From the NCBI GenBank assembly GCA_902800965.1, contig CADCGK010000012.1, positions 1 to 64,000 of the forward strand: a DNA stretch of 64,000 nucleotides, given 5' to 3'. This stretch comes from an uncultured Bacteroidia bacterium (GTDB lineage: Bacteria; Bacteroidota; Bacteroidia; Bacteroidales; F082). A program made the position numbers and the translations under genes. The notes beneath the pieces were generated by a model. That model worked only from the letters and a program-made list of their open reading frames with translations. It searched no databases and had not been told where the DNA came from. Below are positions 2 through 3,526 of the stretch, one piece after another; the first letter of the stretch is position 1, and each line of letters opens with the position of its first letter.

Positions 2-898
2 CTTACAAATGGCGGCGAGTATAATCCAATAAAATGGGATTGGAGCAGTTCCAATACGTATGACGGCATGCTTTTAGGAGGTGTTTTTGGAGGCTTGTCT
101 AGTTGGACAGGTTTTTCCATTGCAGGTATTGGTTTTTCTTTTTGTAATACAGCAGCGATAGCATCATCTTCTTTGATTTATTCTGGCGGGATGTATTTTA
201 CAGGTAAGTTGACGAACTTTAACTACGATATTTCCATCAGTATCGGTATTGCTTCATTAAATATAACTAAAGGTGAATTTGGATATTTATTTAAAAAGGG
301 TAATTCAGTGTTTGAGAACATTGGATATGGTCTCGGAGCAATAACCAATATTAGTGACATCTATCGTTATGCCACTTGGGGAAGATTGTCAAAACAACAA
401 CGGTACGAGAAACTATACAAATGGGCTGCGAAAAACCATGGAGAAAATAATATGGAATACAAACCGCAGCTATTTGATGAAACTGGTAATCCTGTAAATG
501 TAGAAGGTACTTATAATTGGGAAACAGATAAAATTAGAATTACAGATATAGCACTCTCTAACGACTATGGATATGCTAAGTCAACGTATCTTCATGAGTT
601 AAACCACAGATTGGATATGACTCCAATGAAACGACTACTCATTATCAATAAAGCTTTGAGAAATATTGATTGGGATTACTACAATGCTGCATGTGAGTGG
701 CATGATCAGTTTTATGCTGCATGTGATGCAAGATCGTATGCAGTAGAACTTTGTAATGCATCAAAAAACGGTCTCTCTTTGAGTCAATTCAATAGTATTC
801 TTCAAAACTACAACTATTATTCTCAATTGTCAGGAGTTTCTCTTCAAATACCAAGATATTCGTTATGGACATTAATAAAAAGCACATTATTACCGTAA
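2..898 (+). CDS. C-terminal part of an RHS-type polymorphic toxin with a putative zinc-metallopeptidase tip
   Basis: The reading frame is open from the left edge, so the N-terminal RHS shell lies outside the window; the first internal ATG is at 68. The first ~120 visible residues are Gly/Ser-rich and hydrophobic, followed by a segment containing GEFGYLFKKGNS and IGYGLGAITNISD. I know this as the pre-toxin linker of Bacteroidota RHS proteins. The tip carries an HExxH zinc-binding motif, HELNH, at 593-607. About 40 residues later come EWHDQ and DARSYA, where an acidic third zinc ligand would be expected. Inferred role: contact-dependent or secreted toxin acting as a protease. The next gene overlaps by 34 bp, as expected for a toxin/immunity pair. 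The target is unknown and proteolytic activity is inferred from the motif only. Confidence 0.6.
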   Translation, partial: LTNGGEYNPIKWDWSSSNTYDGMLLGGVFGGLSSWTGFSIAGIGFSFCNTAAIASSSLIYSGGMYFTGKLTNFNYDISISIGIASLNITKGEFGYLFKKGNSVFENIGYGLGAITNISDIYRYATWGRLSKQQRYEKLYKWAAKNHGENNMEYKPQLFDETGNPVNVEGTYNWETDKIRITDIALSNDYGYAKSTYLHELNHRLDMTPMKRLLIINKALRNIDWDYYNAACEWHDQFYAACDARSYAVELCNASKNGLSLSQFNSILQNYNYYSQLSGVSLQIPRYSLWTLIKSTLLP

Positions 899-1416
899 TT
901 TTAGTCTTGACTATGACATCCTGTTCAACAGAACAGATCATGAACAGGCTTTTTAATCATAACAGGTCTCATCGGTTGGAACTGTTTCTTGAGACCGCAA
1001 AAGACACCTTGTATAGTAACAAAGAATATCATGATGTATGTTCTGTTGTGCTAAAAAATCTTGAAAGCAATCCCTATTACATTAGGGAACCACGTGTCGT
1101 GCAATATAGCAGGTTTCAAGATCCTCCTTATATCTTCATTGAATACAAAAAAGAAACATGTGAAAAATGTTCTGTTTCAGAAGGGACGACGATTCACAAT
1201 ATACATTTACCGGGTTATATTTTTTTACGACAAAGCAAACCATACCTATCGACATTCACACCAAATTTTAAGGAACTGTTTTGTTGTGGCTGCAAAAAAG
1301 ACGTAATAAAAACCGGAAAAGAAATCTATGGAAAATATCAAATTAGAGCAAGGTTCGTGATAGAGAACGACACCATCTATTCTAATCCGATTAGTATTTG
1401 GTATCTTGAGAAATAA
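865..1416 (+). CDS. Predicted lipoprotein, probable immunity protein for the upstream toxin
   Basis: The 183-residue protein starts with a basic N-terminus, a hydrophobic stretch and a lipobox ending LTMTSC, so it should be a lipid-anchored exported protein. No known domain is recognised. Visible features are an MNRLF segment after the lipidation site and two CxxC-like pairs (CEKC and CCGC) that could bind metal or form disulfides. Its ATG lies 34 bp inside the toxin gene in another frame, so the pair is translationally coupled. The position immediately after a toxin tip suggests immunity. A lipoprotein location would imply the toxin is neutralised outside the cytoplasm. Base composition is AT-rich like the toxin tip and unlike the core genome. 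Confidence 0.5.
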   Translation: MDINKKHIITVILVLTMTSCSTEQIMNRLFNHNRSHRLELFLETAKDTLYSNKEYHDVCSVVLKNLESNPYYIREPRVVQYSRFQDPPYIFIEYKKETCEKCSVSEGTTIHNIHLPGYIFLRQSKPYLSTFTPNFKELFCCGCKKDVIKTGKEIYGKYQIRARFVIENDTIYSNPISIWYLEK

Positions 1417-1417
1417 G

Positions 1418-1873
1418 TTTTTTTGTCGTAATTTAGCCTCGAGAAAAGACCACGTGAAAAACCTAGAAGAGATATTTCAGTACGACAGCCAGAACCGATT
1501 GACAGAAGTGTGGCTCGGGCCCCACGCCATGGACGCCGCCACAACCGCCGAGGGGGTGTTCCCGGCAACAGCGCAAACCGTTACTTATACCGGTTTCGAC
1601 AAAGCCGACAAGATCAAGCAGGACAACGACAGCATCTGTTACACCTACGGCTACGACCACCAACGCATCTTTATGGAAGAGCACATTGGCAGCATTGTCC
1701 GCACCAAGCGCTATGTGGGTAACTGCGAGTATGTGACGGAAACCACAGGAAACACAACTGCCTCTCAATGGCTGACCTACCTGACTGGATCCACGGGTGT
1801 GTATGCCGTCGTTGTTACTGCGAACAACGCGAACACGATCCATTACATCTTGAAGGACAACCTCGGCAGCTAG
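1418..1873 (+). pseudogene. Orphan RHS core fragment, truncated at both ends
   Basis: The frame resembles RHS repeats: NLASRKD and FQYDSQNRLTEVW at the start, YTYGYDHQR in the middle, and the conserved pre-core block YILKDNLGS at the very end. It has no plausible start of its own (a GTG lies at 1455) and stops immediately after DNLGS, exactly where an intact RHS protein continues into its core. It is GC-rich while both flanks are AT-rich, so the junctions at about 1430 and 1870 are sharp. This is the layout of an orphan RHS cassette downstream of a main rhs-immunity pair. Here its tip has been replaced by the minus-strand module that follows, whose last stop codon overlaps this one. Confidence 0.65.
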
Positions 1874-2430
1874 TTACTAACCACCATAAATTCTGGTTCA
1901 ATCAGGTTCTTAGCAAGGTCAGAAGTGTCGTTAATGCGATCTATTGGAATACGAGCCGTATAAGAAGCAAATTGAACCATCATTTGTTCACGATATGGAG
2001 AATCAAGTTGTGCCAAATTCTCAAGTATGTTTATTTCAGCAAAAAGAACAGAAACAACATGCTGAAAGTCAACAAACAAAGGCGGAGATTCCAATATCGG
2101 CTCCATATTAATGAAATAATAGCGCGAAACACCTTTGTTAAAAATATAATCGTCAAGAAAAGGCTTGATTTTGCTGTTCCATTTGGTTTTGCTCAATTTA
2201 TGGTCTTCACCAACACCTGCGACCCTGTTCTTGAATTCCTTGGATTCAAGAATAACGTTCTTTGCTGGTATAAGACTGGCTAAAAGAACAAATCCCATTT
2301 TATCATTTATGAAATCGCAGGCATTGCTCAATACAATTCCCAATGGGTTATTTTCACCAAAGCCAAAGTCAACACCATCCACTATACTACCTTGAGTAAT
2401 ATTCTCTGATGCTTCTGATATCATACTCAT
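1870..2430 (-). CDS. Uncharacterised protein, third gene of a TIGR04255-led module
   Basis: The 186-residue soluble protein has no signal peptide or membrane segment. Its N-terminal third contains LGIVLSNACDF followed by a hydrophobic strand and LIPAKNVI. The C-terminal half has an LFVDF strand and then a helix with DSPYREQMMVQFASYTARI. From memory, this resembles uncharacterised proteins with a (T/S)xxCD motif near the start and a Leu..PYRE...FA..(F/Y).RI end, often in accessory loci. It starts 2 bp after the stop of the 95-residue gene, so it is co-transcribed. Its TAG stop overlaps the TAG of the RHS fragment on the other strand within one CTAG. ATG codons at 2430 and 2424 are both possible starts. 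Confidence 0.6.
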   Translation of the reverse strand: MSMISEASENITQGSIVDGVDFGFGENNPLGIVLSNACDFINDKMGFVLLASLIPAKNVILESKEFKNRVAGVGEDHKLSKTKWNSKIKPFLDDYIFNKGVSRYYFINMEPILESPPLFVDFQHVVSVLFAEINILENLAQLDSPYREQMMVQFASYTARIPIDRINDTSDLAKNLIEPEFMVVSN

Positions 2431-2432
2431 TA

Positions 2433-2720
2433 CTAATACTCTATTTTTATAAAATCACCTAGAGACTTCCCAGAATATGCATCAACAAAAGACTTTGATT
2501 TTGTCAAATTTGCATAACGAGACCTATAGTCCTTTTTGGGCAAGATTTGAGACACCTCAGAATAAACAGCCAAATGGTCTTTCTGTTGGCTATAGACATA
2601 CAAAAGAGTTTTCTGATTCTTTTTATCCATGTCAGAAGTATCATAAATAACATTTGTTGGCATTCCACCGCCAATCACAATTCCTAAACTTGTGTACAAA
2701 AACAATTGGCCCTTATTCAT
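2433..2720 (-). CDS. Small uncharacterised protein, second gene of the TIGR04255-led module
   Basis: The 95-residue protein begins with a short hydrophobic, glycine-rich stretch (LYTSLGIVIGGG) and continues as a charged Lys/Ser/Tyr-rich domain. No family is recognised. Its ATG lies 8 bp inside the preceding gene, and the next gene starts 2 bp after its stop, so the three genes form a tightly coupled unit. It may be membrane-associated through its N-terminus, or the hydrophobic part may be a buried strand; the sequence does not decide this. Confidence 0.5.
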   Translation of the reverse strand: MNKGQLFLYTSLGIVIGGGMPTNVIYDTSDMDKKNQKTLLYVYSQQKDHLAVYSEVSQILPKKDYRSRYANLTKSKSFVDAYSGKSLGDFIKIEY

Positions 2721-3453
2721 ATTCTGGTTGCAGTGATTCTAAAAATTGGTTTGTTAGCAAACTGAAAAACACTTTTTTCTCTGACTTATGAATGTCTTCC
2801 AAAAATTCAGAGGCGTTATCAAAAAATCGTTCACATGTAACAGAAAAAGTATCCACATCAATTACAGATCCAATTCTGATAGGCGTACTATTGTTCAATC
2901 GAGCTTGGTTAATAATGGATACTGTTGAATGATACTCTCCCTCAGAAAAAACCGTCTTAATCGTTGTTTCCTTATATGGAATTTCTTTTTCTCCTATGCG
3001 AATATTCAACTTTATTTTCTCTCCATCAAACACATTGCCATCAATAAAATTAATAACCCTGAAGCCTATACGAACTACCCGACCAATCACACCTGTTTCA
3101 TGGATGACATTCAAATAGCGATTGACAAACGAACGAAATTCTTTCCATCCACAATATTCTGGGGTAAAACTAAATCCAACCGACTTGGCACATATTTGAA
3201 GTACAATATTTTCATTATCTTTATAATGAAGCTTATAAGCGGGTTGGTATTTCAAATTAGGATCTGTGTCACGCATTGATGCTGGAACTTCAGAAAGAGG
3301 TAATGCTTCTATCGTTGGGAAGTCATCTTTCAATTTCCCATAAATCAATGCAAAGACAATATTAGCATCCAAATTGGAATCAAACCTGATTTCAAATACA
3401 GATTCAATTATTGGACACAGATTCAATTTAACAGGTATTTTCATTATCTTCAA
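2713..3453 (-). CDS. TIGR04255 family protein (sporadically distributed, function unknown)
   Basis: The 246-residue protein opens with CPIIESVFEIRF, has YCGWKEFRSFVNRYL at about residues 110-125 and then RVVRIGFRVINFI. This order (P-(L/I)-xE-hxEhRF, Y.GW..F, R.GhRhIN) matches the TIGR04255 family as I know it. The family is scattered through accessory regions of many bacteria and has no established function. It is the first gene of a three-gene minus-strand unit, with a -7 box at 3526-3519 upstream. ATG codons at 3453 and 3444 are both possible. The AT-rich composition and island position point to recent acquisition. Confidence 0.7.
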   Translation of the reverse strand: MKIMKIPVKLNLCPIIESVFEIRFDSNLDANIVFALIYGKLKDDFPTIEALPLSEVPASMRDTDPNLKYQPAYKLHYKDNENIVLQICAKSVGFSFTPEYCGWKEFRSFVNRYLNVIHETGVIGRVVRIGFRVINFIDGNVFDGEKIKLNIRIGEKEIPYKETTIKTVFSEGEYHSTVSIINQARLNNSTPIRIGSVIDVDTFSVTCERFFDNASEFLEDIHKSEKKVFFSLLTNQFLESLQPEYE

Positions 3454-3518: not shown

Positions 3519-3526
3519 CAAATATA
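3519..3526 (-). promoter_or_regulatory. -7 box TATATTTG for the TIGR04255 module
   Basis: On the minus strand the sequence fits the Bacteroidota consensus TAnnTTTG and lies about 65 bp upstream of the first ATG of the three-gene unit. The 135-bp AT-rich spacer shows no other gene. No clear -33 element is visible. Confidence 0.45.

What the first reader, a model, noticed from the sequence alone, without database searches (positions are those of the whole stretch)
1418..3453. Three-gene TIGR04255-led module that cuts an orphan RHS cassette
A coupled AT-rich trio (246, 95 and 186 residues; overlap 8 bp, gap 2 bp) sits where an RHS core fragment ends exactly after DNLGS. The trio occupies the place of the toxin tip. 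TIGR04255 proteins are sporadic and without known function, and the 186-residue partner belongs to no family I can name. Tight coupling, accessory location and its own promoter are the marks of a defence, toxin-antitoxin or interference module. This is the best candidate here for an undescribed gene system.
Basis: inference. Interest (0 to 1): 0.65.

Follow-up and report, generated by a model that had tools for sequence, protein, structure and literature searches.

The report
Mobile three-gene toxin–antitoxin-like cassette
Three overlapping genes next to a broken RHS gene form a widespread, phage-carried cassette that looks like a toxin (MazF/CcdB-like fold), a small antitoxin-like protein and a dedicated third protein of unknown role, an arrangement for which I found no description.

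Summary
The trio is real and is a genuine conserved gene system. Gene 1 (3453-2713) is TIGR04255, gene 2 (2720-2433) is a 95-aa protein with an uncharged hydrophobic N-terminus, and gene 3 (2430-1870) is a 186-aa orphan. A genome scan selecting on gene 1 alone finds gene 3 two genes downstream in 30 of 40 loci, across several phyla. Every viral or prophage locus examined with enough upstream DNA carries all three genes in order. In Pseudomonas phages VW-6S and Dobby the trio sits in accessory slots (repressor-integrase, integrase-portal) that match or resemble published prophage defence hotspots. The gene 3 model has a MazF/CcdB toxin fold. In other TIGR04255-led operons the third gene is a PemK/MazF toxin, a PIN toxin or a probable HEPN protein. 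I conclude that gene 3 is a toxin, gene 2 its antitoxin-like partner, and TIGR04255 the constant third component, probably stabilising gene 2 as SecB does in toxin-antitoxin-chaperone systems although it is not SecB-like. Toxicity, neutralisation and phage defence are inferred, not shown. The RHS context is incidental. No library or open-access paper searched describes the system. It is best rated a new variant of tripartite toxin-antitoxin systems.

The parts
2713..3453 (-). gene 1: TIGR04255 family protein, 246 aa (TTG start; ATG at 3444 gives 243 aa); constant component of the module, predicted duplicated TBP-like alpha/beta fold
   Evidence: NCBIfam TIGR04255 E 1.2e-30, phrog_5464 E 1.9e-33; AlphaFold2 pLDDT 95.3; Foldseek and VIA-align
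2433..2720 (-). gene 2: 95-aa antitoxin-like small protein; uncharged hydrophobic segment at residues 7-25, linker, C-terminal segment 'SFVDAYSGKSLGDFIKIEY' that goes with the gene 3 subtype
1870..2430 (-). gene 3: 186-aa protein with predicted MazF/CcdB fold (residues 9-162), conserved QG...LSNxCD motif; predicted toxin
   Evidence: AlphaFold2 pLDDT 80.4; Foldseek top 50 all MazF/CcdB family; VIA-align Z 12.0 to MazF, 11.4 to CcdB
3519..3526 (-). TATATTTG, a possible Bacteroidota -7 element 66 bp upstream of gene 1 (weak evidence)
1445..1870 (+). RHS core remnant broken at DNLGS; flank, not part of the system
   Evidence: 66% identical to an intact RHS gene (1921-aa frame) in the same genome, which continues past DNLGS

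Best explanation
The trio is a mobile, tripartite toxin-antitoxin-like module. Gene 3 is a toxin on a MazF/CcdB scaffold. Gene 2 is its small antitoxin: its C-terminal tail contacts the toxin and its uncharged hydrophobic N-terminal segment makes it dependent on gene 1. Gene 1 (TIGR04255) is a dedicated chaperone-like or sensor partner that keeps gene 2 folded and the toxin silent; when gene 1 is titrated or gene 2 is lost, for example on infection by another phage, the toxin is freed and stops growth. Temperate phages and other mobile elements carry it to defend their host or to addict it. Shown here: conserved three-gene order, mobile carriage, predicted toxin fold of gene 3, replacement of gene 3 by known toxin families beside other TIGR04255 genes, and the layout of gene 2. 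Inferred: toxicity, neutralisation, the chaperone role, the trigger and defence.
For: (1) Co-occurrence: scan by gene 1 alone; gene 3, detected with a profile built only from viral copies, lies downstream in 30 of 40 loci and nowhere else in them; the trio is intact in all 25 viral loci examined with upstream DNA. Gene 1 and gene 3 distances correlate (Mantel r 0.79, 0 of 2000 permutations, 33 loci). (2) Fold: every one of the 50 listed Foldseek hits of the gene 3 model is MazF/CcdB family; VIA-align Z 12.0, rmsd 3.0 over 109 residues. (3) The third slot holds toxins: PemK (E 6.4e-13 and 4.1e-13) and PIN (1.3e-9) beside TIGR04255 in other operons, probable HEPN. (4) Gene 2: most hydrophobic 19-mer starts within the first 20 residues in 36 of 39 copies, usually with 0-1 charges; its C-terminus goes with the gene 3 subtype (NFWDLI-like with long gene 3; GKSLG..I.IE with the window type). 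(5) In phage VW-6S the trio lies between CI and integrase, the position of a published anti-phage hotspot in a P2-related phage; in P2-like phage Dobby between integrase and portal, the portal being one border of the published P2 hotspot (PMC9122126). (6) The gene 3 domain is also the C-terminal domain of receiver-like proteins beside HATPase genes and Vsr/DUF1998-like genes, as expected of an effector.
Against: No experiment exists. Gene 3 lacks detectable sequence similarity to PemK (hhalign 0.4-4% probability) and lacks the Arg-Pro motif of PemK/MazF; its conserved Cys-Asp is not a MazF feature. TIGR04255 is not SecB-like, so a chaperone role rests on analogy. The gene 2 segment could equally be a membrane anchor. 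In two loci (L002, L006) gene 1 is replaced by an unrelated-looking protein, so TIGR04255 itself is not indispensable.
Confidence: 0.62

Rival explanations
1. Membrane-linked abortive-infection system: the hydrophobic segment of gene 2 anchors it in the membrane, TIGR04255 senses a phage product, and gene 3 is the effector; there is no classical antitoxin.
For: Uncharged hydrophobic N-terminal segment in nearly all gene 2 copies; prophage accessory-slot positions.
Against: Mean hydropathy mostly 0.8-1.8, marginal for a membrane helix; the third gene is swapped for classical type II toxins PemK and PIN, which normally need antitoxins.
Confidence: 0.2
2. Plain addiction module: a tripartite toxin-antitoxin system that only stabilises mobile elements, with no role in phage defence.
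For: Carried by phages, a plasmid-borne element and integrative elements; singleton in its genus.
Against: Prophages that already integrate carry it in slots known for anti-phage genes (PMC9122126); a related module on a Methylocystis plasmid lies beside an abortive-infection family gene.
Confidence: 0.25
3. The trio is a phage anti-defence or lysogeny-conversion factor, for example a protein inhibitor of host defence, and the MazF-like protein is not toxic.
For: Carried by temperate phages next to repressor, integrase or portal; the MazF catalytic motif is not conserved.
Against: Also in many bacterial chromosomes across phyla; toxin families replace gene 3.
Confidence: 0.1
4. Part of the RHS system: the trio replaces the RHS tip as a toxin-immunity cassette.
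For: It abuts an RHS core remnant.
Against: The RHS frame stops at DNLGS, about 105 residues short of the tip boundary, and the trio is on the opposite strand; no RHS gene is needed elsewhere.
Confidence: 0.02

Closest known systems
Toxin-antitoxin-chaperone (TAC) systems, e.g. HigBA1-SecB of M. tuberculosis and CmdTAC
   Same: Three-gene operon with swappable toxins, a small antitoxin-like protein with a possible dependency segment, and a dedicated third protein; CmdTAC is an anti-phage system (PMC5105189, PMC11618068).
   Different: The third protein is TIGR04255 with a different predicted fold, not SecB; the hydrophobic segment is N-terminal rather than a C-terminal ChAD; gene 1 (not the toxin) comes first.
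MazF/PemK/Kid and CcdB toxins
   Same: Predicted fold of gene 3 (Z 12.0 and 11.4); true PemK proteins fill the same slot in other TIGR04255 operons.
   Different: No detectable sequence similarity; the PemK Arg-Pro motif is absent; invariant Cys-Asp and an inserted helical region; biochemical target unknown.
TIGR04255 (NCBIfam), phrog_5464, phrog_5728, phrog_4575
   Same: Window gene 1 matches TIGR04255 and phrog_5464; phage copies of genes 1, 2 and 3 match phrog_5464, phrog_5728 and phrog_4575.
   Different: These are names without function; none describes the three-gene unit or its toxin fold.
Anti-phage hotspots of P2-like prophages (Rousset et al. 2022, PMC9122126)
   Same: Slot between cI and integrase (VW-6S); neighbourhood of the portal gene (Dobby).
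   Different: The trio is not named in the passages read, and no PADLOC model matches it; in Dobby the other border is the integrase, not the replication gene.

Membership tests
Toxin-antitoxin-chaperone (TAC) systems | Third component is a SecB-family chaperone | tested here: not met
   Gene 1 hits TIGR04255 only, not Pfam SecB; hhalign of three SecB-like proteins against 52 TIGR04255 proteins 0.4% probability.
Toxin-antitoxin-chaperone (TAC) systems | Antitoxin carries a C-terminal chaperone-addiction (ChAD) extension | tested here: not met
   The hydrophobic segment of gene 2 is N-terminal in 36 of 39 copies. A ChAD grafted at the N-terminus still worked on model proteins (PMC5105189), so the analogy stays open.
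Toxin-antitoxin-chaperone (TAC) systems | Toxin released when chaperone or antitoxin is lost | not testable with these tools
   Needs expression experiments.
MazF/PemK superfamily toxin | MazF/CcdB fold | tested here: met
   AlphaFold2 model pLDDT 80.4; all 50 listed Foldseek hits MazF/CcdB; Z 12.0, 109 residues, 3.0 A.
MazF/PemK superfamily toxin | Sequence match to PemK/MazF family PF02452 | tested here: not met
   No Pfam match; hhalign to a PemK profile 0.4% and 3.9%.
MazF/PemK superfamily toxin | Catalytic residues conserved | tested here: inconclusive
   The weak profile alignment shows no Arg-Pro counterpart; a structure-based residue alignment was not available.
CcdB-type gyrase poison | Gyrase binding | not testable with these tools
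   Fold similarity only (Z 11.4, 96 residues, 2.1 A).
TIGR04255 | Score above NCBIfam cut-off (30 bits) | tested here: met
   107.2 bits.
Known anti-phage defence system | Match to a catalogued system | tested here: not met
   No PADLOC 2.0.0 model hits for the window or for Dobby, Salinimicrobium or IMG/VR copies; newer catalogues were not available.

The most novel reading that the evidence does not exclude
TIGR04255 proteins are the constant hub of a large, undescribed class of tripartite toxin-antitoxin or defence systems with interchangeable toxins (MazF-fold Cys-Asp proteins, PemK, PIN, HEPN and several unknown families), using a TBP-like-fold protein where TAC systems use SecB, and spread by temperate phages in defence hotspots.
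Probability: 0.45. Interest if true: 0.75.

Novelty: new variant of a known kind. Interest (0 to 1): 0.62.

Why it matters
TIGR04255 is a functionless 'sporadic' family. Showing that it heads modular three-gene units whose last gene is a toxin fold gives the family a testable role and joins three unexplained phage protein families (phrog_5464, 5728, 4575) into one system. If the chaperone-like model holds, dependence of an antitoxin on a dedicated partner evolved with more than one kind of partner protein.

Tried and rejected
SecB-like fold for gene 1, suggested by the strand-helix order of its C-terminal half: no SecB in the Foldseek lists (absence alone proves nothing) and no profile match. 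Guanido kinase or McsB similarity of gene 1 (VIA Z 8.1-8.6) is in the range the tool calls common; no kinase claim is made. The replacement first gene of L002/L006 looked TIGR04255-like by eye but hhalign gives 0.4%. Sequence link of gene 3 to PemK failed; only the fold shows it. A VapB-like reading of the L068 gene 2 tail could not be confirmed: no Pfam, NCBIfam, PDB or plasmid match. Viral scans with A1 and A12 found no relatives, so the short window-type gene 3 was not found in viral contigs. Papers naming TIGR04255 or the PHROG numbers: none in the open-access library. The RHS-tip replacement idea was rejected.

Full report
OBSERVATION. TIGR04255 is confirmed; the other two match no family. 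GC is 34.8% against 49.2% for the window, and gene 1 is found in only 1 of 99 genomes of the genus.

RHS FLANK. The fragment 1445-1870 is 66% identical to an intact RHS gene in the same genome. There the core continues about 105 residues past DNLGS before the DPDG boundary, so the break lies inside the core. The trio runs on the opposite strand and occurs elsewhere without RHS. The RHS setting is incidental.

A CONSERVED UNIT. A scan of 84,980 species genomes by gene 1 alone returned 43 loci. A profile built only from viral copies of gene 3 finds gene 3 downstream of gene 1 in 30 of the 40 loci with enough downstream DNA, and nowhere else in those loci. Hosts include Bacteroidota, Delta-, Gamma- and Betaproteobacteria, Pseudanabaena, Hydrogenedentes and Mcinerneyibacteriota; a Peregrinibacteria locus (L062) carries the short form by alignment. 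The closest match to the window type is in a Candidatus Coprenecus MAG (L077: 242/90/204 aa). A scan of viral contigs by long-type gene 3 returned 40 loci; of 27 inspected, all 25 with a readable gene 3 and upstream DNA show the small gene and a TIGR04255-type gene in the same order. Several viral loci are near-identical, so these are not 25 independent events. Gene 1 and gene 3 distances correlate (Mantel r 0.79 over 33 loci). Part of that reflects host relatedness.

THE WINDOW TYPE AND THE LONG TYPE. Gene 3 has a short form (window, L077, L058, L062, L002, L006) and a longer phage-type form. They are homologous by profile comparison (94.9%, E 4.5e-8), and the viral profile recovers two short forms independently (E 0.002 and 0.006). 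The short form is still closer to the C-terminal domain of receiver-like proteins beside HATPase genes (99.0%, E 2.2e-18), some next to Vsr-like and DUF1998-like genes (the last two named from sequence by eye).

GENE 3 IS A TOXIN FOLD. The AlphaFold2 model (34 sequences, pLDDT 80.4, pTM 0.77) matches MazF and CcdB structures in all 50 listed Foldseek hits (E 0.003-0.03, probability 0.97-1.00), and VIA-align gives Z 12.0 to S. aureus MazF over 109 residues and 11.4 to CcdB. I had predicted this fold from the sequence pattern before the model was made. Sequence methods alone do not reach PemK. The PemK Arg-Pro motif is missing and a Cys-Asp pair is nearly invariant, so the activity may differ from MazF. 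CcdB shows that the fold supports non-RNase toxins.

THE THIRD SLOT HOLDS TOXINS. Beside other TIGR04255 genes the last gene is PemK (L061, L026) or PIN (L068) above Pfam cut-offs, and a probable HEPN in L024 (below cut-off; PDB HEPN match E 0.039) and in Sulfurimonas phage SNW-1 (R..DY motif). Several other third genes are unknown. In an even sample of 198 phylum genomes TIGR04255 occurs in 9; in the loci inspected, only the window's has this gene 3, so TIGR04255 is broader than the trio.

GENE 2. In 36 of 39 copies the most hydrophobic 19-residue stretch begins within the first 20 residues, usually with no or one charged residue, followed by a variable linker and a short conserved C-terminus. 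The C-terminus changes with the gene 3 subtype, as expected of a toxin-binding tail. The segment is marginal for a membrane helix.

GENE 1. The model is very confident (pLDDT 95.3) and shows a duplicated alpha/beta saddle; nearest folds are TBP, the AdoMetDC prozyme and, at middling Z, guanido kinases. It is not SecB-like. In L002 and L006 a different protein takes its place.

CARRIAGE. Pseudomonas phage VW-6S has the trio between CI and integrase; Rousset et al. report an antiviral hotspot between cI and integrase in a P2-related phage (PMC9122126). Phage Dobby has it between integrase and portal; the P2 hotspot lies between gpA and the portal gene. A Phocaeicola plasmid record has it beside a tyrosine integrase.

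MECHANISM. The best reading is a tripartite toxin-antitoxin module: gene 3 toxin, gene 2 antitoxin with a toxin-binding tail and a dependency segment, gene 1 the dedicated partner. In CmdTAC, phage capsid protein titrates the chaperone, the antitoxin is degraded and the toxin released (PMC11618068); the same logic would fit here. Everything from toxicity onward is inference.

NOVELTY. No PADLOC model matches, PHROGs lists the phage families as unknown, and no open-access paper names TIGR04255. Subscription papers and newer defence catalogues were not searched.

Noticed in passing
L025, L028, L063, L070, L074, L075, L079: Other TIGR04255-led operons share unknown third genes with a 'HA(N/S)I' or 'WHFSI(R/Q)W' motif; some of their second genes carry 'NWDGYGA'. 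Possibly another effector family.
   Followed up: partly
L004, L007, L008, L009, L010, L016, L022: The gene 3 MazF-like domain is the C-terminal domain of receiver-like proteins next to HATPase kinase-like genes, in L008, L010 and L016 with a Vsr-type gene alongside (DUF1998-like gene in L008): a second, separate system using the same effector domain.
   Followed up: partly
window 2-898 and 865-1416 (+): C-terminal part of an RHS-type protein with an HELNH metallopeptidase-like motif, overlapped by a 183-aa lipoprotein-like gene that may be its immunity protein.
   Followed up: no
L141 (Rhizobium sp. CB3060 plasmid): A TIGR04255 operon lies beside multiubiquitin, ThiF and DUF6527 genes.
   Followed up: no
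L002 and L006: Genes 2 and 3 of the window type occur with a different first gene (205/213 aa) that has no detectable similarity to TIGR04255.
   Followed up: partly
L139 (Methylocystis iwaonis plasmid): TIGR04255 with a 70-aa gene and a 'TQDCDL' gene 3 relative, next to an abortive-infection family gene and WGR-domain genes.
   Followed up: no
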